Shown: in pieces, positions 12,020-44,678 of the stretch
Layout: every line of letters starts with the position of its first letter
How positions within the stretch are numbered: position 1 is the stretch's first letter
Translations under genes and position numbers: made by a program
Source of the DNA: Cypionkella psychrotolerans
Lineage (GTDB): Bacteria > Pseudomonadota > Alphaproteobacteria > Rhodobacterales > Rhodobacteraceae
Reading direction: 5' to 3'
Assembly (NCBI RefSeq): GCF_001294535.1
Contig: NZ_LGIC01000073.1
Span: 1 to 64,000, forward strand
Length of the DNA: 64,000 bases
Notes under the pieces: generated by a model
Databases searched by the model: none
The model's input: the letters and a program-made list of their open reading frames with translations, nothing else
Told to the model about the DNA's origin: nothing

Positions 12020-14011
12020 CTATGGCGTTCTGATCCCATAGGCCTCGATTTTGCGATACAGCGTCGGTCGCGAAATCCCCAGCGCCAGCGCTGCCTTGCT
12101 GAGATTGCCGTGGTGACGCTTCAGGGCGTCTTCAATCAGCCTGACTTCGGCCTGTTTCAGTGAAGCATCGCGCGCAAGGGTTGGCTCTTGCGTCGCAAAC
12201 ACCTCGGTCAATCCGGTCTTGGCCACGGCGGGCGCGGTGATTTCGCTGGGCAGATCGGCGAGCGTCACCGTGCGCGATTTCGCCAGACTGTGCAGCCCCA
12301 GCATCACATTGCGCAGCTCTCGCACATTGCCGGGCCAGACATGCGCCATCAACGCACCCTGCACCTCGGGGCTGAAGATCAGCCGATCCCGTCCGGTCTC
12401 GATACAGATCTTGCGGATGTAATGCTCGGCGATCAGCAAGACGTCCTCGCCGCGCGCGTGCAGCGGCGGGATTGTCAGCACCAAGGTGCTCAGCCGGTAG
12501 AACAGATCGCGGCGGAACCGCCCGGCTTCGACCTCATCGCGCATGGCGCGGTTGGTCAGCGACAGCACGTGCAAAGCTTCGGCGGGCGGATGCGGGCCAT
12601 TCAGGCGCGTGCTTTGTTCCTCAAGGATGCGCAGCAGGTATAGCTGCGTCTCAGCCGACGTTTCGCCGATCTCGTCCAAGCAAAGCGGTTCGGTGCGCCC
12701 CGCCTCCAGCGGTTGCAGCAGCGCATCGCCAAACATTTTCGGGTTCATTGCCCCACAGTTGACAGTTCGGAAGCAATCGCCACTTTCGGGCGACATCCGC
12801 GCGTGGATCAGGCGGGCAAACAACTCTTTGCCAACCCCGGTCTGGCCCTCAATCAATGTCGGCTGATTGGCCGAAGCGATGCGCTGGGCGGTGTCCAAAG
12901 CCTCAAGGATAGCCTCGCTCTTGCCGACGATCTTCAACCCTGTCGTGCCGATTAGCACGCCCGGGAGCGCCGTAGCAGAGGGTCGGATGACGGTTGCAGC
13001 CTGCGGCACTTTTGGTCTTTGCCGAAGCGCGAGTGCCGCCCCCTTGATCATCCCGTCGATCTCGATCAGCCGGATGTCATCGCAGCAATGTGTGCTGGGC
13101 AAAGCGGCGGCGATTTTTGCTTCGGAAATGCCATCGGGCAATTCCAGAAAATGCGCGCCCAGCCCCAGATCCTGATCCGGTCGCCCGACATTGACGCCGC
13201 TGTTGCGGCTGAAGATCAGCCTGCCGAAACGGTCGATGATCGCAAAGCCGTCCGAATTGTCCATCGCTCGACCGGGCAGGCTGCCCATCGTCGCCTCCAT
13301 CAGCCGAATGTTCATCAGCGATTGCTCTTGCTGTAGCACCAGTTCGATGTCGCGGGCGGCGGTGGCGGCGAAGGCGGCGTTGTGCTTTTGGAAAATTCGG
13401 GTCAACCCGGACAGATTGACCACACCGATGATGCTGTGATCAATCGGATCGCGGATCGGGGCGGCCGCACAGCTCCACGCCTTCATGCCCTCGCAGAAAT
13501 GTTCCTCGCCATGGACATATACTGGCTGCCCCGTCCACAGCGCGGTGCCGATCCCGTTCGTGCCCGAGGCATGTTCGCTCCACAACCCGCCGACCGATAG
13601 GTTGATCTTGCAGGCTTTGCGCAGGGTGGAACTGTCGCCGACCGTCTCGAGGATGACACCGTCGCGGTCGGTCAGCAGCAGCATCGCCTCGGCCCCCGAC
13701 AGCAGATCGCCGATCCGCATCATTGAGGTCCGCGCCGCCCGGCGCAACTCGGCCTGATCATGGCTCGATTTTGTCGCCATCCCGCGTTCAAAGGAGGGCG
13801 CCGCAAATTGCTCTGGCTTGATGCCCGTGCTGGTGGACCGCACCCAAGATTGATAGATCAACGAGCGCACTCCGGCCATCGGCAGGCTGGGCGCGTTGCG
13901 GTTTGACAGAAATTTGTTCCAAGCCCGCGAGGTTTCTCGTGGGTCTACATCGGTGAAATCAATATCTGGACGTGCGGCTTTAGGCCCGCTGCGCTGGTCA
14001 GATGTCATCAT
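12020..14011 (-). CDS. AcoR-type regulator (GAF, AAA+, Fis-HTH) lacking the GAFTGA loop
   Basis: A 663-aa protein with the layout of AcoR/MimR-type enhancer-binding activators. The N-terminal sensory region with a GAF-like domain spans about residues 60-230, a linker follows, then the AAA+ domain (about 355-575) and a C-terminal Fis-type HTH (about 628-658, NLSKAALALGISRPTLYRKI). Walker A (GQTGVGKE, 389-396), Walker B (LCLDEIGE, 443-450), the arginine-finger region (RFRRDLFYRLS) and WPGNVREL are intact. Between the Walker motifs the sequence runs NCGAMNPKMFGDALLQPLEA straight to Walker B, so the ELFGxxxGAFTGA loop that binds sigma-54 is absent and the span is about 14 residues shorter than in NtrC. 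The frame is open and clean. Its position beside the monooxygenase genes makes it their probable regulator. Ligand unknown. Confidence 0.92.
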   Translation of the reverse strand: MMTSDQRSGPKAARPDIDFTDVDPRETSRAWNKFLSNRNAPSLPMAGVRSLIYQSWVRSTSTGIKPEQFAAPSFERGMATKSSHDQAELRRAARTSMMRIGDLLSGAEAMLLLTDRDGVILETVGDSSTLRKACKINLSVGGLWSEHASGTNGIGTALWTGQPVYVHGEEHFCEGMKAWSCAAAPIRDPIDHSIIGVVNLSGLTRIFQKHNAAFAATAARDIELVLQQEQSLMNIRLMEATMGSLPGRAMDNSDGFAIIDRFGRLIFSRNSGVNVGRPDQDLGLGAHFLELPDGISEAKIAAALPSTHCCDDIRLIEIDGMIKGAALALRQRPKVPQAATVIRPSATALPGVLIGTTGLKIVGKSEAILEALDTAQRIASANQPTLIEGQTGVGKELFARLIHARMSPESGDCFRTVNCGAMNPKMFGDALLQPLEAGRTEPLCLDEIGETSAETQLYLLRILEEQSTRLNGPHPPAEALHVLSLTNRAMRDEVEAGRFRRDLFYRLSTLVLTIPPLHARGEDVLLIAEHYIRKICIETGRDRLIFSPEVQGALMAHVWPGNVRELRNVMLGLHSLAKSRTVTLADLPSEITAPAVAKTGLTEVFATQEPTLARDASLKQAEVRLIEDALKRHHGNLSKAALALGISRPTLYRKIEAYGIRTP

Positions 14012-14106: not shown

Positions 14107-14583
14107 CTACGCGATGTCAAGTCGCGCTTTGATGTCGTCGGCAAGCTGGTCTTCCGTATAGGCGCGGTTGATCACCCGTTGCGCAAGATCTGCGATTTTT
14201 TCAACAATTTCAGGCTCTAGCGGGCTGATGAACCCATTCGCCGCCGTTGCGATGAAAAAGCATTTCTCGCCGTTCAAGCGTTTGATTTCACCCAGGAAAG
14301 CCAGTTGTACACCGGTGTTGCTATCCGCAAGCACCACCCGCCCGTTCAGGCTGACGCGCACATAAGGCACCGCTTCATCGGGTCTGCGCGGCGCGGCCTG
14401 ATCGACAATGATCAACCCCTGCGCCTGAGGAGGCGGTGCCGCCTTGCGGGCCTTGTCCTGCGAATACTTGCCGCCGCTGAGGGTATCGGCCAGCTTTTCG
14501 ATGGTGCCCCAGTTGCGCTGAAGATATTCCTTGGCGCGCTTGTCTTCCGGTCTTGTCGCGCTAAGTCTAGAATGGATATCCAA
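14107..14583 (-). CDS. Conserved-looking protein of unknown function
   Basis: About 158 residues if translation starts at the TTG at 14583, which has AAGGAG eight bases upstream; ATG 14616 or ATG 14673 would give longer forms (177 or 188 aa). I do not recognise the family. The N-terminal 70 residues are polar and basic, followed by an Ala/Pro linker (KAAPPPQAQG). A C-terminal domain has alternating strands (YVRVSLNGRVVLADSNTG, KCFFIATA) and a helical end. No signal peptide or membrane segment. It lies between the AcoR-type regulator and the 68-aa gene, downstream of the GTAAC-type palindrome, so it probably belongs to the monooxygenase island. Confidence 0.6.
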   Translation of the reverse strand: MDIHSRLSATRPEDKRAKEYLQRNWGTIEKLADTLSGGKYSQDKARKAAPPPQAQGLIIVDQAAPRRPDEAVPYVRVSLNGRVVLADSNTGVQLAFLGEIKRLNGEKCFFIATAANGFISPLEPEIVEKIADLAQRVINRAYTEDQLADDIKARLDIA

Positions 14584-14688
14584 TCGACTCACTCCTTGGT
14601 GTGCGATGGGTGTCATTTTGTCGCAGGCTAACACAGCCTGCGGGTTTTCGTGCATTGCATCGAAACCGGGCAAAAAAACCCAATCTGC

Positions 14689-14705
14689 TGTAACGAAGCG
14701 TTACA
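14689..14705. promoter_or_regulatory. TGTAACG-AAG-CGTTACA palindrome, candidate regulator site
   Basis: A perfect 7-bp inverted repeat with a 3-nt centre, in the 138-bp gap between the 68-aa gene and the 14107-14583 gene. The same pattern, less perfect, occurs twice upstream of the hydroxylase gene (16491-16505 and 16511-16525). No GG-N10-GC promoter was found between this site and the downstream gene. Confidence 0.6.
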
Positions 14706-14951: not shown

Positions 14952-16058
14952 TCAGGATTTGAACATGGCGTCGGGGAATTCGACCAAAGCAGCAGAGCCG
15001 TCGGTTCCGGCAAGGGCGAGGAAGCGGCCGTCCTGCGACCAGACCATTGCACTGATCCCCGCACCGGTATCCTCGCGCAGCAAAATTTCGGATGGCTGGC
15101 CGATCTCGGCAAGGCTCAGCAGCCCATTGGCATAGCCGACCGCCACCAGATTGCGGTTGGGGCAAGTGGCCACCGCATTGACGACCACGAGGCCCGCCTT
15201 GCCCGTCACCACATCGCGCCCATCCTCCAGCGCCCATGCGGCGACGCGGAACGCGCCCGAGGCAACCACGGTCTTGGTATTTTGCCCAAAGCCAGTGCTG
15301 CGCACGGCAGCGGGGAAGTTGCTGCGGTGAAGGGCATGGTTGCGGGCGGTGTCGATCAGATAAAACCCGTCCGCCGCCGCCCGGCACACCATCCAAGTGC
15401 CATCCGGGTGCCACTGCAAGTCGGTGGCGGGTTCGGCAAGCACGGTTTCAATCGGAGGGCTGTTAAGATCCTTAAGGGGCAGTCGCCAAACGGCGTTTCC
15501 CTGCGCCACGGCCAGCGTCAGCCCATCGGGCGAAAACGCCACGGCGCTGATCATATCCGGCAGCGCAATCATCTGCGGGTCGGTGGTTTCGGCACTGGCA
15601 ACATAAAGCTCAGTACCGCTGGCATAGGCCAAGGTCTTGCCATCCACTGACGCCGCCAACACCCCAATCGCCGCCTGCGCGCGCGGTGGGATGTGATAGG
15701 CGATCCCTCCCGCCGACAGCGCGTTGATCCGCCCACTGGTCTTGGCAAAGGCGAAACCCTGCGCGCCAAACGCCACCACTTCCGAACTGCGCCCCTCCGT
15801 AAACTCCGCCACTTTCAGCGGCAGAAAGGGCTTCTCGCGCGCCGCAATCGTCAGCCGCCCGGTGTCAATCGCCCGTCGCGTGCGCAGGGTGGGTGAGGCT
15901 TTATCAGCAGTGGCCGCCAGATGCACCGAGCCATCCGCACAGGCGAAAGCGACGGCGGAAATATCGGCGTTAAAGCTGATCTGCTCCACGGGCGAGGCCA
16001 GCTGCCAATCACGGGCAATCAGGTCAAAAAGCTGCAAATGGGCGCGTTCGTCTTTCAT
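14952..16058 (-). CDS. WD40-like beta-propeller protein
   Basis: A 368-aa cytoplasmic protein with repeated blades such as ISAVAFSPDGLTLAVAQGNAVW (about residues 170-190), ATDLQWHPDGTWMVCRA and ISAMVWSQDGRFLALAGTDGSAAL near the C-terminus. This is the WD40/YVTN propeller pattern, with perhaps six to seven blades. ATG 16058 (MKDERAHL) follows GGGGGAACCACC; the frame is open upstream to 16085. No signal peptide. Propellers of this kind are usually protein-interaction platforms. It is 14 bp downstream of the coiled-coil gene and is probably cotranscribed with it, divergent from the monooxygenase operon. Function in the pathway unknown. Confidence 0.8.
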   Translation of the reverse strand: MKDERAHLQLFDLIARDWQLASPVEQISFNADISAVAFACADGSVHLAATADKASPTLRTRRAIDTGRLTIAAREKPFLPLKVAEFTEGRSSEVVAFGAQGFAFAKTSGRINALSAGGIAYHIPPRAQAAIGVLAASVDGKTLAYASGTELYVASAETTDPQMIALPDMISAVAFSPDGLTLAVAQGNAVWRLPLKDLNSPPIETVLAEPATDLQWHPDGTWMVCRAAADGFYLIDTARNHALHRSNFPAAVRSTGFGQNTKTVVASGAFRVAAWALEDGRDVVTGKAGLVVVNAVATCPNRNLVAVGYANGLLSLAEIGQPSEILLREDTGAGISAMVWSQDGRFLALAGTDGSAALVEFPDAMFKS

Positions 16059-16072
16059 GGTGGTTCCCCCGT

Positions 16073-16396
16073 TTATGATTGGCACAGCGCGGAAATATCG
16101 GCACTGATCCGGGCCAGTAACGTTTCCAGCTTCTCAGCTTCCTGCTCGGTTTCGGCCAAGGCCTGCTGGGCAGAACTCTGCTCCAGATAGAGTTGATCCA
16201 GTGCGGCCTGCGCGGCGGCCTGATCGACATATTCGATCAGGTCATGTTCAGCACACATCACTTCAATCTCTTTGCCCGCTACCCGCTGACGCTTGCTCAA
16301 CAGCTTGCAGTTCTCTTGGCACAGCAAACCCACGACCGCGACCCGCAGCTTTTGCAACTCAGCCATCTTGTCAGAAATCTGTTCTAAATCAGACAT
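16073..16396 (-). CDS. Small coiled-coil protein of unknown function
   Basis: A 107-aa protein starting at ATG 16396 (GGAG 8 bases upstream; the frame is open to 16471). Two heptad-rich segments (residues about 3-30 and 58-100, with many Gln, Glu and Leu) flank a middle part with three Cys residues (LLCQENCKLL and EVMCAEHDL). No known domain is recognised. It is the first gene of the leftward satellite group and shares its upstream region with the hydroxylase promoter. The Cys/His content could bind metal, but that is speculation. Confidence 0.7.
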   Translation of the reverse strand: MSDLEQISDKMAELQKLRVAVVGLLCQENCKLLSKRQRVAGKEIEVMCAEHDLIEYVDQAAAQAALDQLYLEQSSAQQALAETEQEAEKLETLLARISADISALCQS

Positions 16397-16490
16397 ATGC
16401 CTGCTCCGCACCAAAACCGGATCACCCGATTTTTCCTCCGCAGTCCACAGCATATCTACCGCCGCCAACATTGCGACAAATTATGAATCC

Positions 16491-16526
16491 GTAACCATTC
16501 ATTACAATTCGTAGCCGTTCGTTACA
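16491..16526. promoter_or_regulatory. Two tandem GTARC-N5-RTTAC sites upstream of mimA
   Basis: Site 1 is GTAACCATTCATTAC (16491-16505) and site 2 is GTAGCCGTTCGTTAC (16511-16525), each followed by A. They are 20 bp apart, about two helical turns, on the same face. Centres lie about 84 and 64 bp before the predicted start. They match the perfect palindrome at 14689-14705 and are candidate sites for the AcoR-type regulator. Confidence 0.65.
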
Positions 16527-16556
16527 AAAAATTATCTGTTTGGCCGCAGTGGATTT

Positions 16557-16572
16557 TGGCCCCTACATTGCC
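16557..16572 (+). promoter_or_regulatory. Sigma-54 type -24/-12 promoter of the monooxygenase operon
   Basis: TGGCCCCTACATTGCC has the invariant GG and GC exactly 10 nt apart and matches the TGGCACG-N4-TTGC consensus at most positions. Transcription would start near 16582, leaving a leader of about 184 nt before ATG 16766. The tandem GTARC sites lie immediately upstream. Confidence 0.75.
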
Positions 16573-16765
16573 TCATCGAAGAAAAAGAACAGCCGCCGCG
16601 ACAACTCAAGGTGGCTCAAAGAACGAAGGAAGGGAGGCCTGCGTTGCGAATGAAATTCACACCCCGTGAAACTGATCCGACGTCTTGGATGGCTGCGAAA
16701 CGCAGTTCTCTGACCTTTGCCGACGGTCCTGCCCACAGCAACTCGAACCAAAAAGGTGAGCAACA

Positions 16766-18433
16766 ATGTCGACTCTGACACTCAACAAAATTACCGCGCA
16801 AAAGGGCATTTCGGTGGCCGATGCGACCCGCAAATGCGCCGATCTGGGGTGGAATCCTTCCTACGTTCAGGAAGCGATGACCTACCCCAGCGACTACAAG
16901 ATCACCAAAGCCCCCCGCGATCCGATGAAGCAGGTGCTGCGGTCCTACTTCTCGATGCAGGAAGAAAAGGACAACCGGGTCTACGGTGCCTTAGATGCCG
17001 CTTTGCGTGGCGATATGTTCCGCAACGTCGAACCCCGCTGGGTCGAATGGATGAAGCTGTTCCTCGCCATCATCCCGTTCCCGGAAATCAGCGCTGCCCG
17101 CTCGATGGCGATGGTCAGCCGTCTCGCACCGGGAGAAGACCTGCGCACCGGCTTCACCATGCAGATGGTCGATGAATTCCGCCACTCCACGATTCAGATG
17201 AACCTGAAAAAGTGGTATATGGAGAATTATATCGACCCTGCGGGCTTCGATATCACCGAAGAAGCGTTCGGAAAGTGCTATGCCACCACCATCGGGCGGC
17301 AGTTCGGCGAGGGCTTCATCACCGGCGATGCGATGACCTCGGCCTGTATGTATCTGACGGTTGTGGCCGAAACCGCGTTCACCAACACGCTGTTCGTGGC
17401 CATGCCGTCCGAAGCTGCCCGCAATGGCGACTATGCACTGCCCACGGTGTTCCTCTCGGTGCAGTCCGACGAATCCCGTCACATCGGCAACGGCCACTCG
17501 CTGATGATGGCCGCGCTGAAAGAGCCGGAGAACCATCTGCTGATCGAACGCGACATGAAATATGCCTTCTGGCAGAACCATGCTATCGTCGATGCGGCCA
17601 TCGGCACCTTCATCGAATACGGCACCACCGACCGCGACAAGAACAAGGAAAGCTATGCCGAGATGTGGCATCGCTGGGTCTACGAAGATTACTACCGCAC
17701 CTACATGCTTCCGATGGAAAAATACGGCATCAAAATCCACCATGATGACGTGACCCTGGCGTGGGAGCGGATCACCAAGAAGAACTACGTCCACAAGGTC
17801 GGGCAGTTCTTTGCAGTCGGTTGGCCGGTCAACTTTTGGCGGATCGAGGCGCAGACCGAGAAAGACTTCGAATGGTTCGAACACAAGTATCCCGGCTGGT
17901 ATGCTGAATTCGGCGATTTCTGGAAATGGTATGCCAAGCTGTCGAAGCCCGGCCAAAAGGTCATCACCTTCAACGAGGAAGTCGGTTACGTCTATCCGCA
18001 TCGTTGCTGGTCTTGCTTGGTTCCCTGCCTGATCCGCGAAGATATGGTGGTGGATACCATCGACGGCCAACTGCACACGTTTGCGCATGAGATCGACCGC
18101 TGGACGGCGGTTGAGGCTTTCGCTGACGAATACCAAGGCCGTCCGACCCCCGCGATGGGCCGGTTCTCGGGCAAGCGCGAATGGGAAACGCTGTATGATG
18201 GCGTCGATCTGGCCGATGCGATTGTCGATCTGAACTTCGTGCGTTCGGATGGCAAAACCCTGATCCCGCAACCGCACCTGCGCTTTGACGACAAAGACAT
18301 GTGGACGCTGGATCATGTGCGCGGCCACACACTCGGCTCGCCACTGAACGCCCTGCGCGGCATGGATGAGGCAACCCGCAAGGCGCATCTCGCCGACTAT
18401 GCCAAGGGTTTCACGATCAACCCCTGCAACTAA
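16766..18433 (+). CDS. mimA: Propane/alkane monooxygenase hydroxylase alpha subunit (MimA/PrmA type)
   Basis: A 555-aa large subunit of a soluble diiron monooxygenase, the catalytic part that inserts oxygen into propane, related alkanes, ketones or phenols in the mycobacterial MimABCD enzyme. Diiron ligands are seen as E in FSMQEEKDNR, DEFRHS (ExxH), AETAF and DESRHI (ExxH). The family segments IIPFPEISAARS and WFEHKYPGWYAEFG are present. The start is supported by AAAAAGGTGAGCAAC before the ATG. It is the first gene of an operon in the order alpha, reductase, beta, coupling protein, as in actinobacterial mim/prm clusters. The exact substrate (propane, acetone, methyl ethyl ketone or phenol) cannot be read from sequence. 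Cytoplasmic; folding probably needs the dedicated GroEL paralogue. Confidence 0.93.
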   Translation: MSTLTLNKITAQKGISVADATRKCADLGWNPSYVQEAMTYPSDYKITKAPRDPMKQVLRSYFSMQEEKDNRVYGALDAALRGDMFRNVEPRWVEWMKLFLAIIPFPEISAARSMAMVSRLAPGEDLRTGFTMQMVDEFRHSTIQMNLKKWYMENYIDPAGFDITEEAFGKCYATTIGRQFGEGFITGDAMTSACMYLTVVAETAFTNTLFVAMPSEAARNGDYALPTVFLSVQSDESRHIGNGHSLMMAALKEPENHLLIERDMKYAFWQNHAIVDAAIGTFIEYGTTDRDKNKESYAEMWHRWVYEDYYRTYMLPMEKYGIKIHHDDVTLAWERITKKNYVHKVGQFFAVGWPVNFWRIEAQTEKDFEWFEHKYPGWYAEFGDFWKWYAKLSKPGQKVITFNEEVGYVYPHRCWSCLVPCLIREDMVVDTIDGQLHTFAHEIDRWTAVEAFADEYQGRPTPAMGRFSGKREWETLYDGVDLADAIVDLNFVRSDGKTLIPQPHLRFDDKDMWTLDHVRGHTLGSPLNALRGMDEATRKAHLADYAKGFTINPCN

Positions 18434-18443
18434 CCCCCTGAAC

Positions 18444-18496
18444 ATGGGCCGGATATTCCGGCCCATACACCCCACGCCGCTGCCCGCTTTGGGCAG
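18444..18496 (+). promoter_or_regulatory. Two hairpins between mimA and mimB
   Basis: ATGGGCCGGA-TAT-TCCGGCCCAT (18444-18466) is a perfect 10-bp stem. CTGCCC-GCTTT-GGGCAG (18480-18496) is a second, shorter stem. Neither has a T-run. They may block 3' decay or partly terminate, so that the hydroxylase is made in excess over the reductase. Confidence 0.6.
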
Positions 18497-18533
18497 GGGA
18501 TTGAAACCTGCACTCTGCAAAAGGCCGCATCAG

Positions 18534-19598
18534 ATGTCAGAAACCTTCACCGTTCGATTGGAACCCGTCGGGGTCGAATTCGAAGTGGCCTCCGGCGAGA
18601 CCGTGCTGGATGCCGCCTTCCGTCAGGGCATTTCGCTGCCGCATGGCTGCAAAGAGGGCCAATGTTCGGCCTGCAAATGCAACCTAGTCGAAGGCGAGGT
18701 CGAACTGCTGAAATACTCCACTTTCGCTTTGTCGGATGGCGAGCGCGAACAGGGCGGCATCTTGCTGTGTCGTTCCCTCGCACAAGACGATCTGACCATC
18801 GAGCTGCTGAATTTCGACGAAGAACTGCTGTCGAAATCCATCGCGGTCAAAGACTTCAAGGGGAAGATCACGGCCAAATCCAACCTGACGCATGACATCC
18901 GGGCCATCGAAATTGATATCGAAACGCCGATCAAATTTTGGGCCGGGCAATATGTCGACATCACCGTCAGAACCAAAGATGGGGAGGAGATTACGCGCTC
19001 GTTCTCCATGGCAAATACGCCGGACCAAACCCAAAAACTCCGGTTTATCATCAAAAAATACCCCGACGGAAAGTTCAGCAATGAACTCGACGCAGGCGGT
19101 ATCGAAGTCGGCGCCGCCGTCAACGTCCGTGGACCCTACGGCACCTGTTTCCGCCGCGAAGGACGCCAAGGGCCCATAGTGCTGGTCGCCGCAGGCTCGG
19201 GCATGTCGCCGATCTGGTCGATCCTGCATGACCATATCGCCAGCGGTGAAAGCCGCCCGGTGCATTTCTTCTACGGCGCACGCACCCAGACTGATCTGTT
19301 CTATCTGCCGCAGATCGCGGCGATCACTGCCGCCCACCCGGAAATCAGCTTCACGCCGGTTCTGTCGCATGCCAGCGACGATCCCGATTGGCACGGCGCA
19401 CAGGGCTTTGTGCATCAGGTGGTTGGCAGCGAGTTGAAGCGCTTGGGTATCGAAGATGGCGATGCCTATGCCTGCGGCCCACCGCCGATGATCGACGCGC
19501 TCAGCCCGGTTCTGTTCATGCTCGATTTCGACCCCGAGCGCACCTTCTACGACAAGTTCACCCCGTCCACCGCACCCGCGCCCATCAAAGCGCATTGA
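18534..19598 (+). CDS. mimB: Monooxygenase reductase (2Fe-2S, FAD, NADH)
   Basis: A 354-aa electron-transfer subunit that passes electrons from NAD(P)H to the diiron hydroxylase. The N-terminal plant-type ferredoxin domain has Cys39, Cys44, Cys47 and Cys79 (CKEGQCSAC...C). It is followed by an FAD domain (RSFSMANTP) and an NAD-binding domain (LVAAGSGMSPIWS, ACGPPPMID). ATG 18534 is chosen because it starts the ferredoxin domain; the open frame extends upstream to 18366 into mimA. It lies 100 bp after mimA, the gap holding two hairpins. Confidence 0.93.
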   Translation: MSETFTVRLEPVGVEFEVASGETVLDAAFRQGISLPHGCKEGQCSACKCNLVEGEVELLKYSTFALSDGEREQGGILLCRSLAQDDLTIELLNFDEELLSKSIAVKDFKGKITAKSNLTHDIRAIEIDIETPIKFWAGQYVDITVRTKDGEEITRSFSMANTPDQTQKLRFIIKKYPDGKFSNELDAGGIEVGAAVNVRGPYGTCFRREGRQGPIVLVAAGSGMSPIWSILHDHIASGESRPVHFFYGARTQTDLFYLPQIAAITAAHPEISFTPVLSHASDDPDWHGAQGFVHQVVGSELKRLGIEDGDAYACGPPPMIDALSPVLFMLDFDPERTFYDKFTPSTAPAPIKAH

Positions 19599-19635
19599 TA
19601 CCAAAGGGTTAAAACCCACCACAAGGGAGAGAGAC

Positions 19636-20694
19636 ATGGTTGCCACATCAAGCTCGGTTGGCTCAGGCGCCGCAGGAGCCGCGATTTTCGCCGACAGCGA
19701 AAGCCGCCGTTACCGCTACTTTGAACCCCGCGCCAAGCGCGCCACCCATTACGAAGATGTGACGGTGGACGTGCAGCCCGACCCGGAGCGTTACCTGATC
19801 CAGGATTGGATCATCTCGTTTCCCGATGGTCGCGGGGCTTATGAGAAAAACAGCACCAAGGCGCAAAGCAGTAACTGGCACGCTTTCCGCGCCCCCGATC
19901 AGGAATGGGAGCGCACGCATTACCAGCGCCAGTCGCGCATTGAGGTGATGGTGCAGGCGGTGATCGCCAATGGTCGCAAATCCGGCGCGCAGCTGGCGTT
20001 TGATGCCGCTTGGGGCAAGACCTTGCAGAAGCATCTGGGCGCTTGGAAACACGCTGAATTTGGCTTGGGCTGTGCGCTGATGCAGGCACAGCGCGGCGGC
20101 TACACCCAGATGATCAATAACGCGACGCTCACCAATTCGTCGTACAAACTGCGGTTGTCGCAGGACATCACGCTGTATCTGGCCGAGATCGGTATGGATA
20201 TTGCGGGGTGGGATGACGAGGCGGGCAAAACCGCTTGGTTGGAAGACCCGATGTGGCAAGGCACCCGCGAAGCCGTTGAAACCATCATGGGCACCGAAGA
20301 TTATCTCGAACAGTATTTCGCGATCAATCTGGTGTTCGAGCCGCTGGTGGGCGAGCTGTTCCGCTCGGGCTTCCTGATGCAGTTTGGCGCCGCCAACAAC
20401 GACTTCATGACCCCCTCGGTGATCGCGGCGGCAGAAGGCGACTATGAGCGCAATCTCGCCAATGCCATCGACCTGATCTGGCTACTGGCCAATGACGAAA
20501 AGTTCGGCGCGGCGAACCGCACGTTGTTCCAGTCTTGGGTCAAGAAGCACGGCGCGCTGGCCGACAAAGCCGCCCGCCAGTTGCAGCCGATCTGGTCGAA
20601 GCCGCATTCGAAGCCGATCAGCTTTGAAGAAGCGCGTGCTGTGTCCGAAGAACGTTTCGCCAAGATCCTCGGCGAAGTTTCCCTGTCCCGCTGA
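19636..20694 (+). CDS. mimC: Monooxygenase hydroxylase beta subunit
   Basis: A 352-aa small subunit of the diiron hydroxylase (MimC/PrmC type), a four-helix-bundle homologue of the alpha subunit without the metal site, needed for the alpha2beta2 assembly. Typical segments are SRRYRYFEPRAKRATHYEDVTVDVQ (shown only in part), AEFGLGCALMQAQRGGY and LVFEPLVGELFRSGF. A strong GGGAGAGAGAC precedes the ATG. It follows mimB by 37 bp and precedes the coupling protein by 11 bp. Confidence 0.92.
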   Translation: MVATSSSVGSGAAGAAIFADSESRRYRYFEPRAKRATHYEDVTVDVQPDPERYLIQDWIISFPDGRGAYEKNSTKAQSSNWHAFRAPDQEWERTHYQRQSRIEVMVQAVIANGRKSGAQLAFDAAWGKTLQKHLGAWKHAEFGLGCALMQAQRGGYTQMINNATLTNSSYKLRLSQDITLYLAEIGMDIAGWDDEAGKTAWLEDPMWQGTREAVETIMGTEDYLEQYFAINLVFEPLVGELFRSGFLMQFGAANNDFMTPSVIAAAEGDYERNLANAIDLIWLLANDEKFGAANRTLFQSWVKKHGALADKAARQLQPIWSKPHSKPISFEEARAVSEERFAKILGEVSLSR

Positions 20695-20705
20695 AAGGAA
20701 ATCCT

Positions 20706-21074
20706 ATGTCAACTGTTGCACGCGACAATTCGCACGACAACATCTTCAAGGCGATGAAGGACATCACCTTTGATAAAACCGTTTCGCATCAATGCGGTGT
20801 CACGATGTCGGATTCGGTCGAGGCCCGCGCCATCGCTGAATTCATGGATGCCAAGCCCGGGGTGACCGTCACCTATAACCCCGCGCTGATCCGCATTGAT
20901 GGCTCGGGTAAGCTGATCTTCAAGATGGATGAGATCAGCGAATTTCTGGGCCGCGAGATGACCGCCGAGTTGTTCGAGGTGAATTCCTCGACCCACTACG
21001 GCCGCATGGTGCGCACCGACGACAACACGGTGATCCTGTTCGGCGATATGAACGAGATGCTCGAATACATCTGA
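20706..21074 (+). CDS. mimD: Monooxygenase coupling/effector protein
   Basis: A 122-aa MmoB/DmpM-family protein with no cofactor. It binds the hydroxylase and couples NADH use to oxygen insertion. Segments such as CGVTMSDSVEARAIAEFM and VTVTYNPALIRIDGSGKL are typical. It is preceded by GAAAGGAAATCCT and lies 11 bp after the beta-subunit gene. Confidence 0.92.
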   Translation: MSTVARDNSHDNIFKAMKDITFDKTVSHQCGVTMSDSVEARAIAEFMDAKPGVTVTYNPALIRIDGSGKLIFKMDEISEFLGREMTAELFEVNSSTHYGRMVRTDDNTVILFGDMNEMLEYI

Positions 21075-21134: not shown

Positions 21135-22160
21135 ATGTATGTAACCCCCGAAGGCAAAGAGATTTTCGTGCTGGATGGCCACACCCATTTCTGGGATGGC
21201 AGCCCCGAAAACCAGAAGAACATCCACGGCAAGCAGTTCATCGACTGCTTTTACGCCTACCACACCGGCCTAAGCCCGAAGGAAGAGCTGTGGGACAAGA
21301 AGAAGTTTGAGAAATACTCTGCCGATGATCTGTACAACGACCTGTTCATCGACGGGCCGGACGATATGGCGATCCTGAATTCGACCTATCTTTCGGACTT
21401 TTACAAGGACGGCTTCAACAACATCGAACGCAATATGTCGGTGGCCAAGAAGTTCCCAAACCGCTTCATCGTCAACGGCGCGTTTGATCCGCGCGATGGC
21501 GAAAAAGCCTTGGAATACATCCACTTCATGAAAGAGACCTATGACATCAAGGGGGTGAAAATGTACACCGCCGAATGGAATGGGGCCTCCAAAGGCTGGC
21601 GGCTGAACGACCCCGATGCCTACAAATGCTTTGAGCTTTGCGAAAAGTTGGGCATCAAGAACATCCATGTCCACAAAGGCCCGACCATCCTGCCGCTGAA
21701 CAAAGACGCCTTCGATGTGCATGATGTGGATTACGCCGCCACCGATTTCCAGGGCCTGAACTGGATCATCGAGCACTGCGGCCTGCCGCGTCTGGATGAT
21801 TTCTGCTGGATCGCGACGCAGGAAACCAACGTCTTCGCAGGGCTTGCTGTGGCGCTGCCGTTCATCCACTCGCGCCCGCGTTACTTCGGTGAGATCATTG
21901 CGGAACTGTTGTTCTGGCTTGGGCCAGAGAAGATCCTGTTCGGCTCGGACTATGCTATCTGGACGCCGAAATGGCTGGTCGAAAAGCTGTGGGCCTTCCA
22001 GATCCCGGAAGACATCTCGGCAGAACGTGGCGGCGTGCAACTGACCGATGAGATCAAGGAAAAGATCCTCGGCCTCAATGCCGCCCGGCTTTACAACATC
22101 GACGTCGCCGCGCGCAAAGCCGAATTTGCCGCGCACCCGATGTCAATCGCAGCCGAGTGA
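21135..22160 (+). CDS. Amidohydrolase-family protein of the mim/prm cluster
   Basis: A 341-aa TIM-barrel amidohydrolase (COG2159 type). The N-terminal metal motif is DGHTHFW (HxH), with further conserved His in NIHVHKGPT and WIIEHCG and the late Asp in LFGSDYAIW. Genes of this type sit directly behind the coupling protein in mycobacterial and rhodococcal alkane monooxygenase clusters, where their role is not settled. It may assist assembly or act on a pathway intermediate. It starts 60 bp after mimD, and its TGA overlaps the next ATG (ATGA). Confidence 0.88.
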   Translation: MYVTPEGKEIFVLDGHTHFWDGSPENQKNIHGKQFIDCFYAYHTGLSPKEELWDKKKFEKYSADDLYNDLFIDGPDDMAILNSTYLSDFYKDGFNNIERNMSVAKKFPNRFIVNGAFDPRDGEKALEYIHFMKETYDIKGVKMYTAEWNGASKGWRLNDPDAYKCFELCEKLGIKNIHVHKGPTILPLNKDAFDVHDVDYAATDFQGLNWIIEHCGLPRLDDFCWIATQETNVFAGLAVALPFIHSRPRYFGEIIAELLFWLGPEKILFGSDYAIWTPKWLVEKLWAFQIPEDISAERGGVQLTDEIKEKILGLNAARLYNIDVAARKAEFAAHPMSIAAE

Positions 22161-22987
22161 TGACCATGACCGCGCCCCTATCTTTCCCCTTGGACGATGC
22201 TCCGTTAAACCAAGCCCCATTGGAACAGGTATGGGCGCGGCTTGATCTGGTGATGGATCCCGAACTCGATGAACCCGTAACCGATATGGGCTTCATCGAG
22301 GCGGTGTCGATCACCAGCCCACCCGAACAGAACACCAGCACGGTGCATGTCAGCTTTCGTCTGCCGACATATTGGTGCTCGCCCAACTTCGCCTTCCTGA
22401 TGGCCGAGGGCATCAAGCGCCAGATCGAAGTGCTGCCTTGGGTCAGCCAAGCCGTAGTGACGCTGCAAGACCACATGGCCGCCGAGGAAATGAACGCGGC
22501 GATCAATGCCGGAACCAGTTTCGGCTCGGTGTTTGCTGAACTCCACCCCGATGAAGACCTTGCCGCCCTGCGCGAGAAATTCGACATCAAGGCGTTTCAG
22601 CGTCGGCAAGAAGTGGTGATCAAAGCGATGATTGCCATGGGTTTCTTGCCTGCTGAAATTCTGACCATGCCGCGTGCCCTGGTGGAAATCGCCGAGTTTA
22701 CCGACCCTGAGACTATCCGCCAAAAGGCCCGCTATCTGGCGATCCTCGACGAAAAACACCTCGCCCCCAGCCCGCGTGATCTGGCTTTCCCGACCTATCA
22801 GGGCGCAAAGATTGACGATTACGCCACCTATATGGGCCTGCTCCGCTCGGTCAGGATCAATATGGAATTCTCCGGCTCGCTGTGCCGGGGTCTGAAACGT
22901 AGCCGCTACCAAGAGGCCGATCTGTCGGGCGACATGCCCATTCTGGTCGATTTCACCACCCACAATCCAACGCACGCCTGCCGCTGA
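22160..22987 (+). CDS. MIP18/DUF59-domain metal-sulfur assembly protein
   Basis: A 275-aa protein. The N-terminal DUF59 domain (about residues 25-110) has the motif MDPELDEPVTDMGFIEAV, as in SufT/MIP18 proteins that help mature Fe-S or iron enzymes. The C-terminal part (about 130-275) is specific to monooxygenase clusters, with a Cys in GSLCRGLKRSRY and a closing HNPTHACR. ATG 22160 overlaps the stop of the previous gene. It probably helps load iron into the hydroxylase or the Fe-S cluster into the reductase; this is inference from family and position. Confidence 0.88.
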   Translation: MTMTAPLSFPLDDAPLNQAPLEQVWARLDLVMDPELDEPVTDMGFIEAVSITSPPEQNTSTVHVSFRLPTYWCSPNFAFLMAEGIKRQIEVLPWVSQAVVTLQDHMAAEEMNAAINAGTSFGSVFAELHPDEDLAALREKFDIKAFQRRQEVVIKAMIAMGFLPAEILTMPRALVEIAEFTDPETIRQKARYLAILDEKHLAPSPRDLAFPTYQGAKIDDYATYMGLLRSVRINMEFSGSLCRGLKRSRYQEADLSGDMPILVDFTTHNPTHACR

Positions 22988-23038
22988 CAGGCGATCCCAA
23001 AAACACTGCAAAATCCGGCTTTGGCCGAAGGAGGAACT

Positions 23039-24670
23039 ATGCCCAAGATCATGATCCACGGTAACGACGCCCGCCGCGCGCTGGCGCATGGTGTGCAGAA
23101 ACTGTCGGCAGCGGTTGAATCGACGCTGGGCCCGATGGGCATGAACGCGATGATTGATCGCCCGATGGGCACTCCGCTGATCAGCCGCGATGGCGTGTCG
23201 ATTGCCTCGGAAATCGAACTGTTCGACCGCTTTGAAAACATGGGCGCGCAGGTGGTACGCGAAGTCTCGATGCAAACCAATGACGTGGCGGGCGATGGCA
23301 CCACCACTTCAATCGTCCTAGCCAATGGCATGATTCAATCCGGCGTGGTGCTGATCGAAAAGGGCGCAAAGCCGGTTGATCTGTGCCGTGGCATCGCGAT
23401 GGCGGTCGAGGCCACCGCCCATGCCCTCCGGGCTGCCGCCAAGCCGGTCAAAGATCACGCGGTGCTGTCGGCTGTCGCCAAAATCTCGGCATCCAGCACC
23501 GAACTGGGCGAACTCGTCGCCGAAGCCTTCCGCCGCGTTGGTGCGCAGGGGGTGATTTCCACCGATTACGGCACGGGCAACACCTCGACCCTGCAAGTGG
23601 TTGATGGCATGGCGTTTGATCGCGGCTATATCTCACATCACATGGTCACTGATCTTGATGCGATGCGCGCCGTGGTGCTGAACCCCTATATCGTGCTGAC
23701 CGACATCAAGATGAAAACCGCCAGCCAGCTCGACGCCGCCAAGGCGATTGCCGCTGAAGATGGCCGCCCCTTGGTGATCATCTCGGAAGAAACCTCGCCC
23801 GAAGTGCTGCTGACACTCTTGGGCAAAGACGGCCCCGGCAAATTCCTCGTGGTGCATCCGCCAGAATTCGGCCACTGGCGCCGCAACATGATGGAGGATC
23901 TGGCGATCCTGACGGGCGGCAAGGTCCTCGCGCGCGATCTGGGCGACAGTCTGGAAAACATCACCCGGCTGGATATGGGTTCTGCGGAACGGGTGGAGGC
24001 CACCAATTCCGACACCATGATCATTCGCGGCAACGGTGATCTGCAATCCATCGCCGCCCGCCGCGCGCAAGTGCAGCGGCTATATGAAGTGGCCCCCCCG
24101 AACATCGACAAAGACAAGTTGCAAGAGCGCCTCGCCAAACTCTGCGGCGGCACCGCGACGATCTTCGCGGGCGGCGTCACCCCGGTTGAACAAAAGCGCA
24201 CCATCCAACTGATCGAGGATTCGCTGAACGCCGTGCGCGCGGCCTCGGACGAAGGCGTGTTGGTTGGCGGTGGCGTGGCGCTGGCCCGTATCGCCCCCTC
24301 GCTCGCCGAACTGGCGCTGGCCGAGCAAGGCGATGTCCGTCGGGGCATCGAATTGGTGCAATCGGTGCTGACCCTGCCGCTTGCTCGTATCGCGTTCAAC
24401 GCCGGGGCCGAACCGAATGACGTGGTGCGCAAGGTCTGCGCTTTGCATGGCGATCATGGCTTTAACGCCGCCACCGGCACCTATCAGGATCTGATGAAAT
24501 CCGGCGTGATTGATCCGGTCCGCGTCACCTATTCGGCGCTGATGAACGCAGGCTCGGTGGCAACCCTGATCCTGACCACCGAAACCCTGATCGCCGATCT
24601 GGCCGAGGACGAAGACCCGACCGCAGGCGCTGCCTTGGGTGGCGGGGCCGAAAAGCTGGGCCGTAAGTGA
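23039..24670 (+). CDS. mimG: GroEL-like chaperonin of the monooxygenase cluster
   Basis: A 543-aa group I chaperonin. The ATP-site motif VAGDGTTTSIVLANG is present and the length matches GroEL. Unlike housekeeping GroEL, the C-terminus lacks the GGM-rich tail and ends in an acidic then GGGAEKLGRK sequence. GGAGGAACT supports ATG 23039. In mycobacteria the cluster-borne MimG chaperonin is needed for productive folding of the MimA hydroxylase, and the same job is inferred here. No groES partner is adjacent, so the housekeeping co-chaperonin is presumably used. Confidence 0.92.
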   Translation: MPKIMIHGNDARRALAHGVQKLSAAVESTLGPMGMNAMIDRPMGTPLISRDGVSIASEIELFDRFENMGAQVVREVSMQTNDVAGDGTTTSIVLANGMIQSGVVLIEKGAKPVDLCRGIAMAVEATAHALRAAAKPVKDHAVLSAVAKISASSTELGELVAEAFRRVGAQGVISTDYGTGNTSTLQVVDGMAFDRGYISHHMVTDLDAMRAVVLNPYIVLTDIKMKTASQLDAAKAIAAEDGRPLVIISEETSPEVLLTLLGKDGPGKFLVVHPPEFGHWRRNMMEDLAILTGGKVLARDLGDSLENITRLDMGSAERVEATNSDTMIIRGNGDLQSIAARRAQVQRLYEVAPPNIDKDKLQERLAKLCGGTATIFAGGVTPVEQKRTIQLIEDSLNAVRAASDEGVLVGGGVALARIAPSLAELALAEQGDVRRGIELVQSVLTLPLARIAFNAGAEPNDVVRKVCALHGDHGFNAATGTYQDLMKSGVIDPVRVTYSALMNAGSVATLILTTETLIADLAEDEDPTAGAALGGGAEKLGRK

Positions 24671-24705
24671 TTGGCTGACCATCAAAATCAGGAAAGGGCT
24701 GCGAA

Positions 24706-25749
24706 ATGAAAGCCGCAAGACTTTACGAATACGACCCCGCGATGAACGTCCAGTTGAAGATCGAAACCGTCAAAGCCCCCACCATCATGGGGCCGACAGA
24801 TGTGATCGTCAAAGTCGGGGCGGCGGGTCTGTGCCGCACCGATCTGCACATCATCGAAGGCGTGTGGAAAGACATCATGGATCAGGGCGGCAACCTTTTG
24901 CCCTACATCATGGGCCATGAAAACGCGGGCTGGGTCGAGGATGTCGGCTCGGGCGTCACCTCGGTCAAACCCGGCGATACGGTGATCTGCCACCCGCACC
25001 GCACCTGTGGCATTTGTCTCTCGTGTCGCTATGGCGATGACATGCACTGCGAACACAGCCTGTTTCCGGGGCTGGGTCTGGACGGCGGCTTTGCCGAATA
25101 TTTTCTGACCTCTGAGCGCAGCCTGATCAAACTGAACCCCAACATCACACCGCTGGATGTAGCCCCGATGGCCGATGCAGGCATCACCGCCTACCGCGCC
25201 GCCAAAAAAGCCGCCAAAGCCCTGCGCCCAGGTGCCTATTGCGTGATCGTCGGGGTAGGGGGCTTAGGCCACATCGCCCTGCAATGCCTGCACGAAATCT
25301 CGGGCTGCCGCATCATCGCGGTTGACCGTGAACCCGCCGCTCGGCAGCTGTGCAAAGACCTCGGCGCGGATTTCGTGCTGGATGGCGGCCCGAATATCAT
25401 CGAAGAGATCAAGCAAATCACCGGCGGCGGCGCGCAAGTGGTGATGGATTTCGTCGGCGAACTCGGCGTCGAAAACCTGTGCTGGAAAATGGTGCGCCCC
25501 GGTGGCGAGCTGATCATGATCGGCTACGGCGGCAAGATCGAAGTGCCCACCGCGCATCTGGTGATCAATGAGATCAACATCGGCGGCAGCCTTGTCGGCA
25601 ATTACACCGAACTGGTCGAGTTGATGGAGCTGAACGCAGACGGCAAGGTCAAGATGCACTATGCCGAATACAGTTTGGATAACATCAACCAAGCCCTCGA
25701 TGATTTCAAACACCGCCGCTTCGCGGGCCGTGGCGTGATCGTGCCGTAA
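24706..25749 (+). CDS. adh: Zinc-dependent NAD(P) alcohol dehydrogenase
   Basis: A 347-aa medium-chain dehydrogenase that should oxidise the alcohol made by the monooxygenase (for propane, 2-propanol to acetone). Catalytic zinc ligands are seen in GLCRTDLH and MGHENAGW. Structural-zinc cysteines lie in HRTCGICLSCRYGDDMHCEH. The Rossmann motif is GVGGLGHIALQ. It starts 35 bp after the chaperonin gene, in the same operon. Confidence 0.93.
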   Translation: MKAARLYEYDPAMNVQLKIETVKAPTIMGPTDVIVKVGAAGLCRTDLHIIEGVWKDIMDQGGNLLPYIMGHENAGWVEDVGSGVTSVKPGDTVICHPHRTCGICLSCRYGDDMHCEHSLFPGLGLDGGFAEYFLTSERSLIKLNPNITPLDVAPMADAGITAYRAAKKAAKALRPGAYCVIVGVGGLGHIALQCLHEISGCRIIAVDREPAARQLCKDLGADFVLDGGPNIIEEIKQITGGGAQVVMDFVGELGVENLCWKMVRPGGELIMIGYGGKIEVPTAHLVINEINIGGSLVGNYTELVELMELNADGKVKMHYAEYSLDNINQALDDFKHRRFAGRGVIVP

Positions 25750-41308: not shown

Positions 41309-41453
41309 AGCATACATATATTGATGCCGATCAGAGCGAAAATCCTGTGACATCAATGCATTGCCGCCAGTCGCCTCATTTCTACGCAGCCGAACGGCAG
41401 CCTGTCATCATAGCATCACAGATTCGTCATCCGCATGTTGGGAGGAGACCACA

Positions 41454-44429: not shown

Positions 44430-44507
44430 GCGTGTCGTAAAGCAGGTGCATACCGTCGCATTCTTTTCACTTGCAAGCCCCACAGCCTCTGCGCTAGCTA
44501 AAGGCAT

Positions 44508-44678
44508 CAGGATCGGGAGAATCCAGTAGGAAACTTCTGGTGCCGAAGGAGCAACCGCCCCGGTAAACTCTCAGGCTCAAGGACCGTTCTGATAACAGAC
44601 TCTGGAGAGTGGTGCCACAGCACCCGCCGAAGGGATAACGATCTCAGGCGCCCAAGTTGGGTATAGACAGAGGGGGCA
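44508..44678 (+). ncRNA. Tandem glycine riboswitch (gcvT element)
   Basis: Two glycine aptamers in series. The first (about 44510-44594) has GGGAGA, GCCGAAGGAGCAA, and ACTCTCAGGCTCAAGGACCG. The second (about 44597-44678) has CTCTGGAGAG, CGCCGAAGGGATAACG, ATCTCAGGCG and GACAGAGGGGG. It lies directly upstream of gcvT and should switch on glycine cleavage when glycine is high. Confidence 0.93.

What the first reader, a model, noticed from the sequence alone, without database searches (positions are those of the whole stretch)
12020..14011. AcoR-type activator of the monooxygenase island has no GAFTGA loop
The AAA+ domain keeps Walker A (GQTGVGKE), Walker B (LCLDEIGE), the arginine-finger region and the Fis HTH, but the stretch between the Walker motifs is about 14 residues shorter than in NtrC and skips ELFG-GAFTGA. 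In known enhancer-binding proteins this loop makes the sigma-54 contact. The frame is clean, so this is not an obvious sequencing error. The protein should bind DNA and perhaps ATP, yet not remodel sigma-54 polymerase, although a textbook -24/-12 promoter lies in the island. It may have become a sigma-70 activator or a repressor, may need a partner activator, or the cluster may be uninducible.
Basis: partly seen in the sequence, partly recalled or inferred. Interest (0 to 1): 0.85.

Follow-up and report, generated by a model that had tools for sequence, protein, structure and literature searches.

The report
Loop-less activator of a monooxygenase operon
A gene switch that normally drives a special form of RNA polymerase has lost the part that touches it, and its target promoter seems to have been rewired in step, so the operon most likely now uses the ordinary polymerase.

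Summary
The 663-aa AcoR-type regulator (minus strand, 14011-12020) keeps GAF, Walker A/B, arginine-finger, lid and Fis-HTH elements but lacks GAFTGA; Walker A-B spacing is 54 against 68-70. It is neither error nor decay: this protein and five readable orthologues (54-92% identical) all lack the loop, and dN/dS among five of the six is 0.08-0.15. In 13 of 13 other Rhodobacteraceae with the same monooxygenase genes the orthologue keeps GAFTGA; the six form one clade, implying one loss. All 13 have a -24/-12 element (9-12 of 12 consensus bases) at a fixed offset from a conserved leader box, and 11 have an operator-like site 133-195 bp upstream. In the loop-less clade that element is decayed (GG/GC broken in 4 of 6) and operators sit rigidly about 59 and 39 bp from it. 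The finding's "textbook" -24/-12 is best read as a relic. Most likely regulator and promoter left sigma-54 together and the protein now activates sigma-70 polymerase, as reported for R. capsulatus NtrC; sigma-70 use is inferred. Other loop-less relatives are known.

The parts
12020..14011 (-). AcoR-type regulator without GAFTGA (GAF residues 89-225, AAA+ 361-512, AAA lid 519-596, Fis HTH 618-658)
   Evidence: ORF and translation; Pfam; Walker A-B spacing 54 against 68-70
16491..16505 (.). operator 1, GTAACCATTCATTAC, centre 59 bp upstream of the former -24/-12 site; binding not tested
   Evidence: a site of 10-11 of 12 at this place in 6 of 6 loop-less clusters
16511..16525 (.). operator 2, GTAGCCGTTCGTTAC, centre 39 bp upstream of the former -24/-12 site; binding not tested
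   Evidence: 10 of 12 in 5 of 6 loop-less clusters, 8 of 12 in G102
14690..14704 (.). operator 3, GTAACGAAGCGTTAC, about 113 bp upstream of the probable start of the 14107-14673 gene
   Evidence: only exact GTAACN5GTTAC in the 5.08-Mb genome; found in 6 of 7 loci examined (one mismatch in L015), not in L016
16557..16572 (+). relic of the ancestral -24/-12 promoter, TGGCCCCTACATTGCC
   Evidence: same offset (62 bp) from the leader box as intact -24/-12 sites in 13 of 13 GAFTGA clusters (56-65 bp); GG/GC broken in 4 of 6 loop-less clusters
16540..16569 (+). weak candidate sigma-70 promoter TTGGCC-N18-TACATT
   Evidence: same two hexamers in window and G003, weaker or incomplete in the other 4; not reported by the standard scan. 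Tentative
16619..16722 (+). conserved leader of the monooxygenase operon: box AAGAACGAAGG (16619-16629) and box ACCTTTGCCG (16713-16722), predicted to pair
   Evidence: AAGAAC[GA]AAGG and ACCTTTGC in 19 of 19 clusters (ACCTTTGCCG in 18 of 19); pairing stem in the best fold of 19 of 19
16766..21074 (+). target operon: soluble di-iron monooxygenase mimA, mimB, mimC, mimD
   Evidence: Pfam Phenol_Hydrox twice, MmoB_DmpM, Fer2/FAD/NAD reductase; MimD NCBIfam match below its cut-off
21135..25749 (+). genes following mimD in the same direction: amidohydrolase, Fe-S assembly-type protein, GroEL-like chaperonin, alcohol dehydrogenase
   Evidence: same order up to the GroEL gene, where the fetched stretches end, in L013-L015 and L017
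14107..16471 (-). divergent accessory genes between regulator and mimA: 188-aa protein, WD40-repeat protein (14952-16085), small 132-aa protein (16073-16471)
   Evidence: same order in 6 of 6 fetched loci L013-L018; Pfam

Best explanation
The gene encodes the dedicated activator of the divergent mimABCD-type monooxygenase operon. Its ancestor was an ordinary AcoR-type sigma-54 activator acting from distal operators on a -24/-12 promoter. In the Cypionkella-type lineage loop 1 (with GAFTGA) was lost once, the -24/-12 promoter decayed, and two tandem operators now lie at a short fixed distance from the start region. The protein most likely senses a ligand through its GAF domain, binds TGTAAC-N5-GTTACA sites as an ATP-dependent oligomer, and activates sigma-70 RNA polymerase by direct contact from the promoter-proximal sites. 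Shown by sequence comparison: loss confined to one clade, purifying selection, promoter decay, conserved palindromes. Inferred: that this protein binds those palindromes, sigma-70 use, role of ATP, inducer.
For: Six of six readable regulators of the clade lack the loop, 13 of 13 mim-associated orthologues outside keep it; the loop-less clade is supported 100/100 with a GAFTGA protein (G140) as sister, 98/99. Score at the homologous promoter position is 9-12 with GG and GC intact in 13 of 13 GAFTGA clusters, against 7-9 with GG/GC broken in 4 of 6 loop-less clusters. Operators are 59/39 bp from that position in four loop-less clusters, 60/40 in G101 and 60 (second site weak) in G102; 11 of 13 GAFTGA clusters have a site at 133-195 bp. 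The third operator, before the 188-aa gene, has no GG..GC element before the start in 5 of 6 loci. dN/dS is 0.08-0.15; key Walker A, Walker B, TNR, arginine-finger and lid residues are invariant in 6 of 6. L016's genome has no detectable rpoN in two searches. Precedents: R. capsulatus NtrC, HupR, TyrR, DhaR, Caulobacter NtrC (passages).
Against: No good sigma-70 promoter is conserved: TTGGCC-N18-TACATT (8 of 12 bases) occurs in 2 of 6 and weaker or incomplete in the rest, and the standard scan reports none on the plus strand. Regulator and promoter changed on one branch, so the association is effectively one evolutionary event and the Mann-Whitney p of 0.0004 overstates it. Two of 6 loop-less clusters, including this window, still keep GG..GC at the old position. 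rpoN is present in the other five genomes searched that carry the loop-less protein and in L018's. Operator-like sites in GAFTGA clusters are partly weak (9 of 12); none was found in G536; one search looked only 300 bp before the leader, and a stronger site in G459 (11 of 12) lies further out, 383 bp before it.
Confidence: 0.68

Rival explanations
1. The protein has become a repressor (or anti-activator) of the operon and of the divergent genes, released by the inducer.
For: A minus-strand sigma-70-like match (TTGTAA-16-CATAAT, 16507-16480) overlaps operator 1 in this window; loop-less TyrR acts as a repressor at some promoters (recalled; PMC3162934 passages mention aroF-tyrA repression).
Against: Both operators lie upstream of any candidate mimA core promoter, not on it; the minus-strand hexamer is not kept in L013, L015 or L017 (alignment); the ATPase motifs are retained.
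Confidence: 0.12
2. The operon is still sigma-54 dependent and a second, GAFTGA-bearing activator supplies the contact, alone or in mixed hexamers with this protein.
For: rpoN is present and GG..GC persists in the window and in G009; one GSFTGA protein exists in the genome.
Against: The -24/-12 is broken in 4 of 6 loop-less clusters; the only loop-bearing activator found in this genome is a response regulator at C65 next to unrelated genes; in the 600 bp upstream of mimA (330 bp for G102) sites with GG..GC score 9 at most in this clade, and G102 has none.
Confidence: 0.1
3. The regulator is on its way to loss and the cluster is constitutive or uninducible.
For: Loss of the defining contact loop; L018's copy is broken or misassembled.
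Against: dN/dS 0.08-0.15, AAA+ domain 0.08-0.19; operator 1 kept in sequence and place down to the 54%-identical orthologue's locus.
Confidence: 0.06
4. The deletion is a sequencing or assembly artefact.
For: The genome is a multi-contig assembly (93 contigs).
Against: The loop is also absent in separate records L013, L014, L015, L016 and L017.
Confidence: 0.01

Closest known systems
Rhodobacter capsulatus NtrC (and Rhodobacterales NtrC generally)
   Same: Bacterial enhancer-binding protein with the GAFTGA loop deleted; reported to activate sigma-70 polymerase, ATP binding rather than hydrolysis needed (PMC10274813 passages). This genome's own NtrC-like protein is also loop-less.
   Different: NtrC is a phosphorylated response regulator; this one has a GAF domain. 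The paper describes the NtrC deletion for the order, whereas here other members of the family keep the loop in the orthologous regulator.
E. coli DhaR
   Same: Best NCBIfam hit of this protein (206.7 bits, cut-off 551); named as lacking GAFTGA and sigma-70 dependent (PMC3162934 passages). AcoR-type by my recall.
   Different: Controls dihydroxyacetone kinase genes and is itself controlled by the kinase (title cited; details recalled). Score far below the family cut-off.
AcoR-type sigma-54-activator orthologues of mim clusters in other Rhodobacteraceae (G137, G139, G108, G140 and 9 more)
   Same: The loop-less proteins are 37-43% identical to the G137 one; same kind of operon; the same SRPTLYRK in the recognition-helix region in the three I printed, G137, G108 and G139.
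   Different: They keep GAFTGA and a -24/-12 promoter with mostly distal operators.
Caulobacter NtrC
   Same: GAFTGA deleted, acts at sigma-70 promoters, Walker A and B residues both needed (PMC10274813 passages).
   Different: Eight-residue deletion (about 15 here); response regulator with broad roles.

Membership tests
Sigma-54 activators (bacterial enhancer-binding proteins) | Sigma54_activat AAA+ domain with Walker A, Walker B and arginine fingers | tested here: met
   PF00158 E 2.1e-27; key residues invariant in 6 of 6
Sigma-54 activators (bacterial enhancer-binding proteins) | GAFTGA in loop 1 | tested here: not met
   absent in 6 of 6
Sigma-54 activators (bacterial enhancer-binding proteins) | conserved -24/-12 promoter at the target operon | tested here: not met
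   GG/GC broken in 4 of 6 clusters of the clade
AcoR-type regulators | GAF + AAA+ + Fis HTH architecture | tested here: met
   GAF 1.2e-14, Sigma54_activat, AAA_lid_14, HTH_8 2e-14
Loop-less, sigma-70-acting enhancer-binding proteins | loop 1 deleted, AAA+ core kept | tested here: met
   a modest model (pLDDT 67) still matches bEBP structures, best Brucella NtrX
Loop-less, sigma-70-acting enhancer-binding proteins | activation from a sigma-70 promoter | tested here: inconclusive
   only weak -35/-10 candidates
Loop-less, sigma-70-acting enhancer-binding proteins | transcription independent of rpoN in vivo or in vitro | not testable with these tools
   needs experiment
mimABCD-type propane monooxygenase operon (target) | two di-iron hydroxylase subunits, reductase and coupling protein in order A-B-C-D | tested here: met
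   MimD model 107 bits, below its cut-off of 150, and no NCBIfam match for mimA; substrate not tested

The most novel reading that the evidence does not exclude
The AAA+ ring is still an ATP-driven machine that now works on sigma-70 polymerase through a surface other than loop 1, and this operon family records the change-over: the same operon exists in a sigma-54 state (GAFTGA, -24/-12, distal operators) and a sigma-70 state (no loop, decayed -24/-12, proximal operators), with G140 (loop kept, operator 87 bp away) close to the intermediate.
Probability: 0.25. Interest if true: 0.82.

Novelty: new member of a known kind. Interest (0 to 1): 0.58.

Why it matters
Loop-less enhancer-binding proteins are known one by one, but how an activator and its promoter leave sigma-54 together is rarely visible. 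Here orthologous regulators of one operon occur on both sides of a single loss placed on a tree, with cis changes at matched positions. That makes the question testable by swapping regulator and promoter between relatives. It also warns against annotating such proteins as sigma-54 dependent and against reading a lone TGG...GC match as a promoter.

Tried and rejected
Textbook -24/-12 reading: rejected. Sequencing error: rejected. Counting all PF00158 hits as activators: rejected; the 15 rows are 13 distinct proteins, of which 7 are full-length enhancer-binding types, one (L037) a 175-aa fragment-like frame and five (L038-L042) weaker matches that I did not inspect. The names NtrC, NtrX and DctD-like for own-genome paralogues rest on my recognition of their sequences, not on a family scan; AcoR-type, loop 1, loop 2, arginine-finger and sensor labels are recalled.

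Rows dropped before counts: L018/G103 (regulator split, residues 259-445 and the end missing, mimA and other genes also partly missing; probably a collapsed assembly; no match at 1e-80) is out of the loop and promoter counts. G086 (mimA 74%, no leader box, only partial regulator matches) is out of the 19 clusters. G092 is loop-bearing but was used only as an outgroup. G102 (L016) is counted for regulator and promoter although its contig ends before mimA. dN/dS leaves out G102. In 3 of 13 GAFTGA genomes the regulator is not close to mimA: G140 and G510 on another contig, G428 about 180 kb away; the other 10 are within about 15 kb.

A sigma-70 promoter conserved in all six: sought, not found. 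A leader peptide (...SLTFADG) suggested by the clade's sequences is not kept in the GAFTGA clusters by eye, so I preferred an RNA element. A missing rpoN in G102 is only suggestive: that genome's completeness was not given. One search's first pattern missed operator 3 in L015; a laxer one found it, and one search's first try at that region failed because the slices were too short.

Papers seen: PMC10274813, PMC3162934 and PMC9213486 as passages only; others only as search listings. Bowman and Kranz 1998, Cullen 1996 and Bachler 2005 only as cited there; two of them were looked up and are not held. I found no paper on this regulator or on sigma switching in mim operons in searches (open-access library, listings only).

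Full report
What is there. The gene runs on the minus strand from 14011 to 12020 and encodes 663 residues in a clean frame. Pfam finds GAF, Sigma54_activat, AAA lid and Fis HTH domains, the AcoR architecture. GQTGVGKE and LCLDEIGE start 54 residues apart, against 68-70 in loop-bearing orthologues, and no GAFTGA lies between them. The loop 2 region (before TNR) has also diverged, RLNGPHPPAEAL where G137 reads YRIGDSERRSVDV. The catalytic elements remain: GxTGVGKE, DE of Walker B, TNR, FRxDLxYR and WPGNVRELRN are invariant in 6 of 6 loop-less proteins. A six-sequence AlphaFold model of residues 355-663 is modest (pLDDT 67, pTM 0.51) and keeps the AAA+ order of strands and helices. Its best structural neighbours are Brucella NtrX and ZraR (rmsd 14-20 over long multi-domain alignments), then single bEBP AAA+ domains (rmsd about 5-6).

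It is conserved, so real. Orthologues L013, L014, L015, L016 and L017 (91, 89, 74, 54 and 92% identical; titles name Cypionkella, Rhodobacter and Rhodobacterales MAGs) all lack the loop. Pairwise dN/dS over the protein is 0.08-0.10 for the window against three same-genus genomes and 0.13-0.15 for pairs with G101 (L015); the AAA+ domain gives 0.08-0.19. The protein is being kept. It is not widespread: 5 of 101 genomes (the window's own included) match at E up to 1e-80.

The loop was lost once. I looked for the monooxygenase gene mimA: 9 of 195 genomes in the relatives search (E up to 1e-150) and 12 of 390 genomes of the order (E up to 1e-200) have it, 18 different genomes, the window's own included. 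A regulator orthologue was found in 17 of the 18; in G086 only partial matches appeared. Outside the window's genus 13 of 13 of these regulators read GAFTGA. In the clade of the window, G001, G009 and G003, plus G101 and G102 reached through L015 and L016, 6 of 6 lack it. A maximum-likelihood tree puts the six together (100/100) with G140, which keeps the loop, as sister (98/99); 4 of 17 inner branches are unresolved and the outgroup branch is long. In 10 of 13 the GAFTGA regulator lies within about 15 kb of mimA; in G140, G510 and G428 it does not.

The promoter changed with it. All 19 clusters share a leader box, AAGAACGAAGG (AAGAACAAAGG in G140), upstream of mimA. At 56-65 bp before this box the 13 GAFTGA clusters carry a -24/-12 element with GG and GC intact: 12 of 12 consensus bases in 6, 11 in 3, 10 in 2 and 9 in 2. 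In single-base shuffles the best of 12 positions reached 9 in 6 of 500 and 8 in a further 23. At the same place the loop-less clusters score 9 (window), 8 (G009) and 7 (G001, G003, G101, G102), and the last four have lost GG or GC. The window's TGGCCCCTACATTGCC, at 62 bp, is thus best read as the relic of the ancestral sigma-54 promoter. A Mann-Whitney test gives p = 0.0004 and Fisher 0.004, but the six share one ancestor, so these are descriptive.

The operators moved. GTAAC-N5-GTTAC occurs exactly once in the 5.08-Mb genome, at 14690-14704 in this island; 3 of the 22 sites with up to one mismatch are in the island, within 2 kb. Two, at 16491-16505 and 16511-16525, lie 59 and 39 bp upstream of the relic. 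The spacing is identical in G001, G003 and G009, 60/40 in G101, and 60 in G102, whose second site scores 8 of 12. Within 300 bp before the leader, sites with at least 9 of 12 matches lie 133-195 bp from the core in 11 of 13 GAFTGA clusters (G428 also at 210), 87 bp in G140, and none was found in G536. Some clusters have further sites still farther out, such as one of 11 of 12 in G459. Chance gives a 9 or better in 70 of 500 shuffled 600-bp stretches, so single weak sites there are uncertain. The third operator, before the 188-aa gene, is followed by no GG..GC element in 5 of 6 loci and by poor ones (5 and 6 of 12) in L018.

How it most likely works. Distal operators with a -24/-12 core are the classical looping, sigma-54 arrangement (established knowledge). 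Proximal operators at rigid spacing with no -24/-12 are what direct contact with sigma-70 polymerase would need. Candidate -35/-10 hexamers (TTGGCC-N18-TACATT) are weak and only partly conserved, and the standard scan reports none on that strand. Weak hexamers are usual at activator-dependent promoters, but this is the least supported step. Retained ATPase motifs suggest ATP binding or hydrolysis still matters, as reported for R. capsulatus and Caulobacter NtrC (PMC10274813 passages).

Rivals. A second activator is unlikely: of 7 full-length enhancer-binding-type proteins in this genome only one, at C65, has the loop (GSFTGA), next to an acetyl-CoA-synthetase-like gene and a histidine-kinase-like gene (gene names by my recognition). 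rpoN itself is present, also in G001, G003, G009, G101 and G103, but was not found in G102, whose completeness is unknown. Six exact TGGCACN5TTGCW sites exist in the genome, none of them in the window, against 2 and 3 for the two control strands. A repressor role remains possible; operator placement argues against it.

What is known. Loss of GAFTGA with a move to sigma-70 is reported or inferred for TyrR, DhaR, HupR, R. capsulatus NtrC, VpsR and Caulobacter NtrC (PMC3162934, PMC10274813; passages). DhaR is the best NCBIfam relative here, well under its cut-off. The finding is thus a new member of a known kind; the added value is a matched pair of states of one operon. Rhodobacteraceae MAGs were among the genomes from a 13C-ethane/propane study at Pipe Creek, where five MAGs (not named in the passage) hold a group V propane monooxygenase (PMC9213486 passages); whether this operon's substrate is propane is untested.

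Side result. The leader between AAGAACGAAGG and ACCTTTGC (starts 54-121 nt apart) folds so that CGAAGG pairs with CCUUUG in the best structure of 19 of 19 sequences, against 34-72 of 100 shuffled interiors per sequence; G140 has a matching G-to-A change (CAAAGG). An inner helix involving the purine-rich stretch varies in sequence (GAAAGC:GCUUUC in G137) and is only 2-3 pairs in some. Mean energy z is -1.1, and two sequences (G137, G140) are positive. No Rfam family matches up to E 5.

Noticed in passing
window 16619-16722: Conserved mRNA leader of mim operons in 19 of 19 clusters: boxes AAGAACGAAGG and ACCTTTGC pair in every best fold; an inner helix often involves a Shine-Dalgarno-like GGGAG; energies only mildly below shuffles; no Rfam match. 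Possible unnamed regulatory RNA.
   Followed up: partly
window 38267-39610 (-): A second enhancer-binding response regulator without GAFTGA (Walker B region LFLDRID), beside a histidine-kinase-like gene (39607-41256) and a transporter-like gene (41361-42815); gene names by recognition.
   Followed up: partly
own genome: L003/L004 (C37), L005 (C13), L006 (C33): Six of 7 full-length enhancer-binding-type proteins in this genome lack GAFTGA; the AcoR-like paralogue L006 also has a degenerate Walker B (LLENLNE).
   Followed up: partly
window 14952-16085 (-): WD40-repeat protein; relatives of 30-38% identity lie near mimA in 4 of the 5 sister clusters read (L052-L055, not L056). Role unknown.
   Followed up: no
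window 14107-14673 (-) and 16073-16471 (-): Two small proteins of the island with no Pfam match up to E 0.01, conserved in order in L013-L018.
   Followed up: no
L018: Regulator and mimA each lack a large stretch, and other genes are cut; probably a collapsed assembly.
   Followed up: partly
G102 (genome of L016): No rpoN found by two searches although it carries the loop-less regulator and operators; completeness unknown.
   Followed up: partly
window 44504-44596: Glycine riboswitch aptamer, 62 bits.
   Followed up: no
window 16480-16507 (-): Sigma-70-like match for the divergent small gene overlaps operator 1 in this window; not kept in L013, L015, L017.
   Followed up: partly
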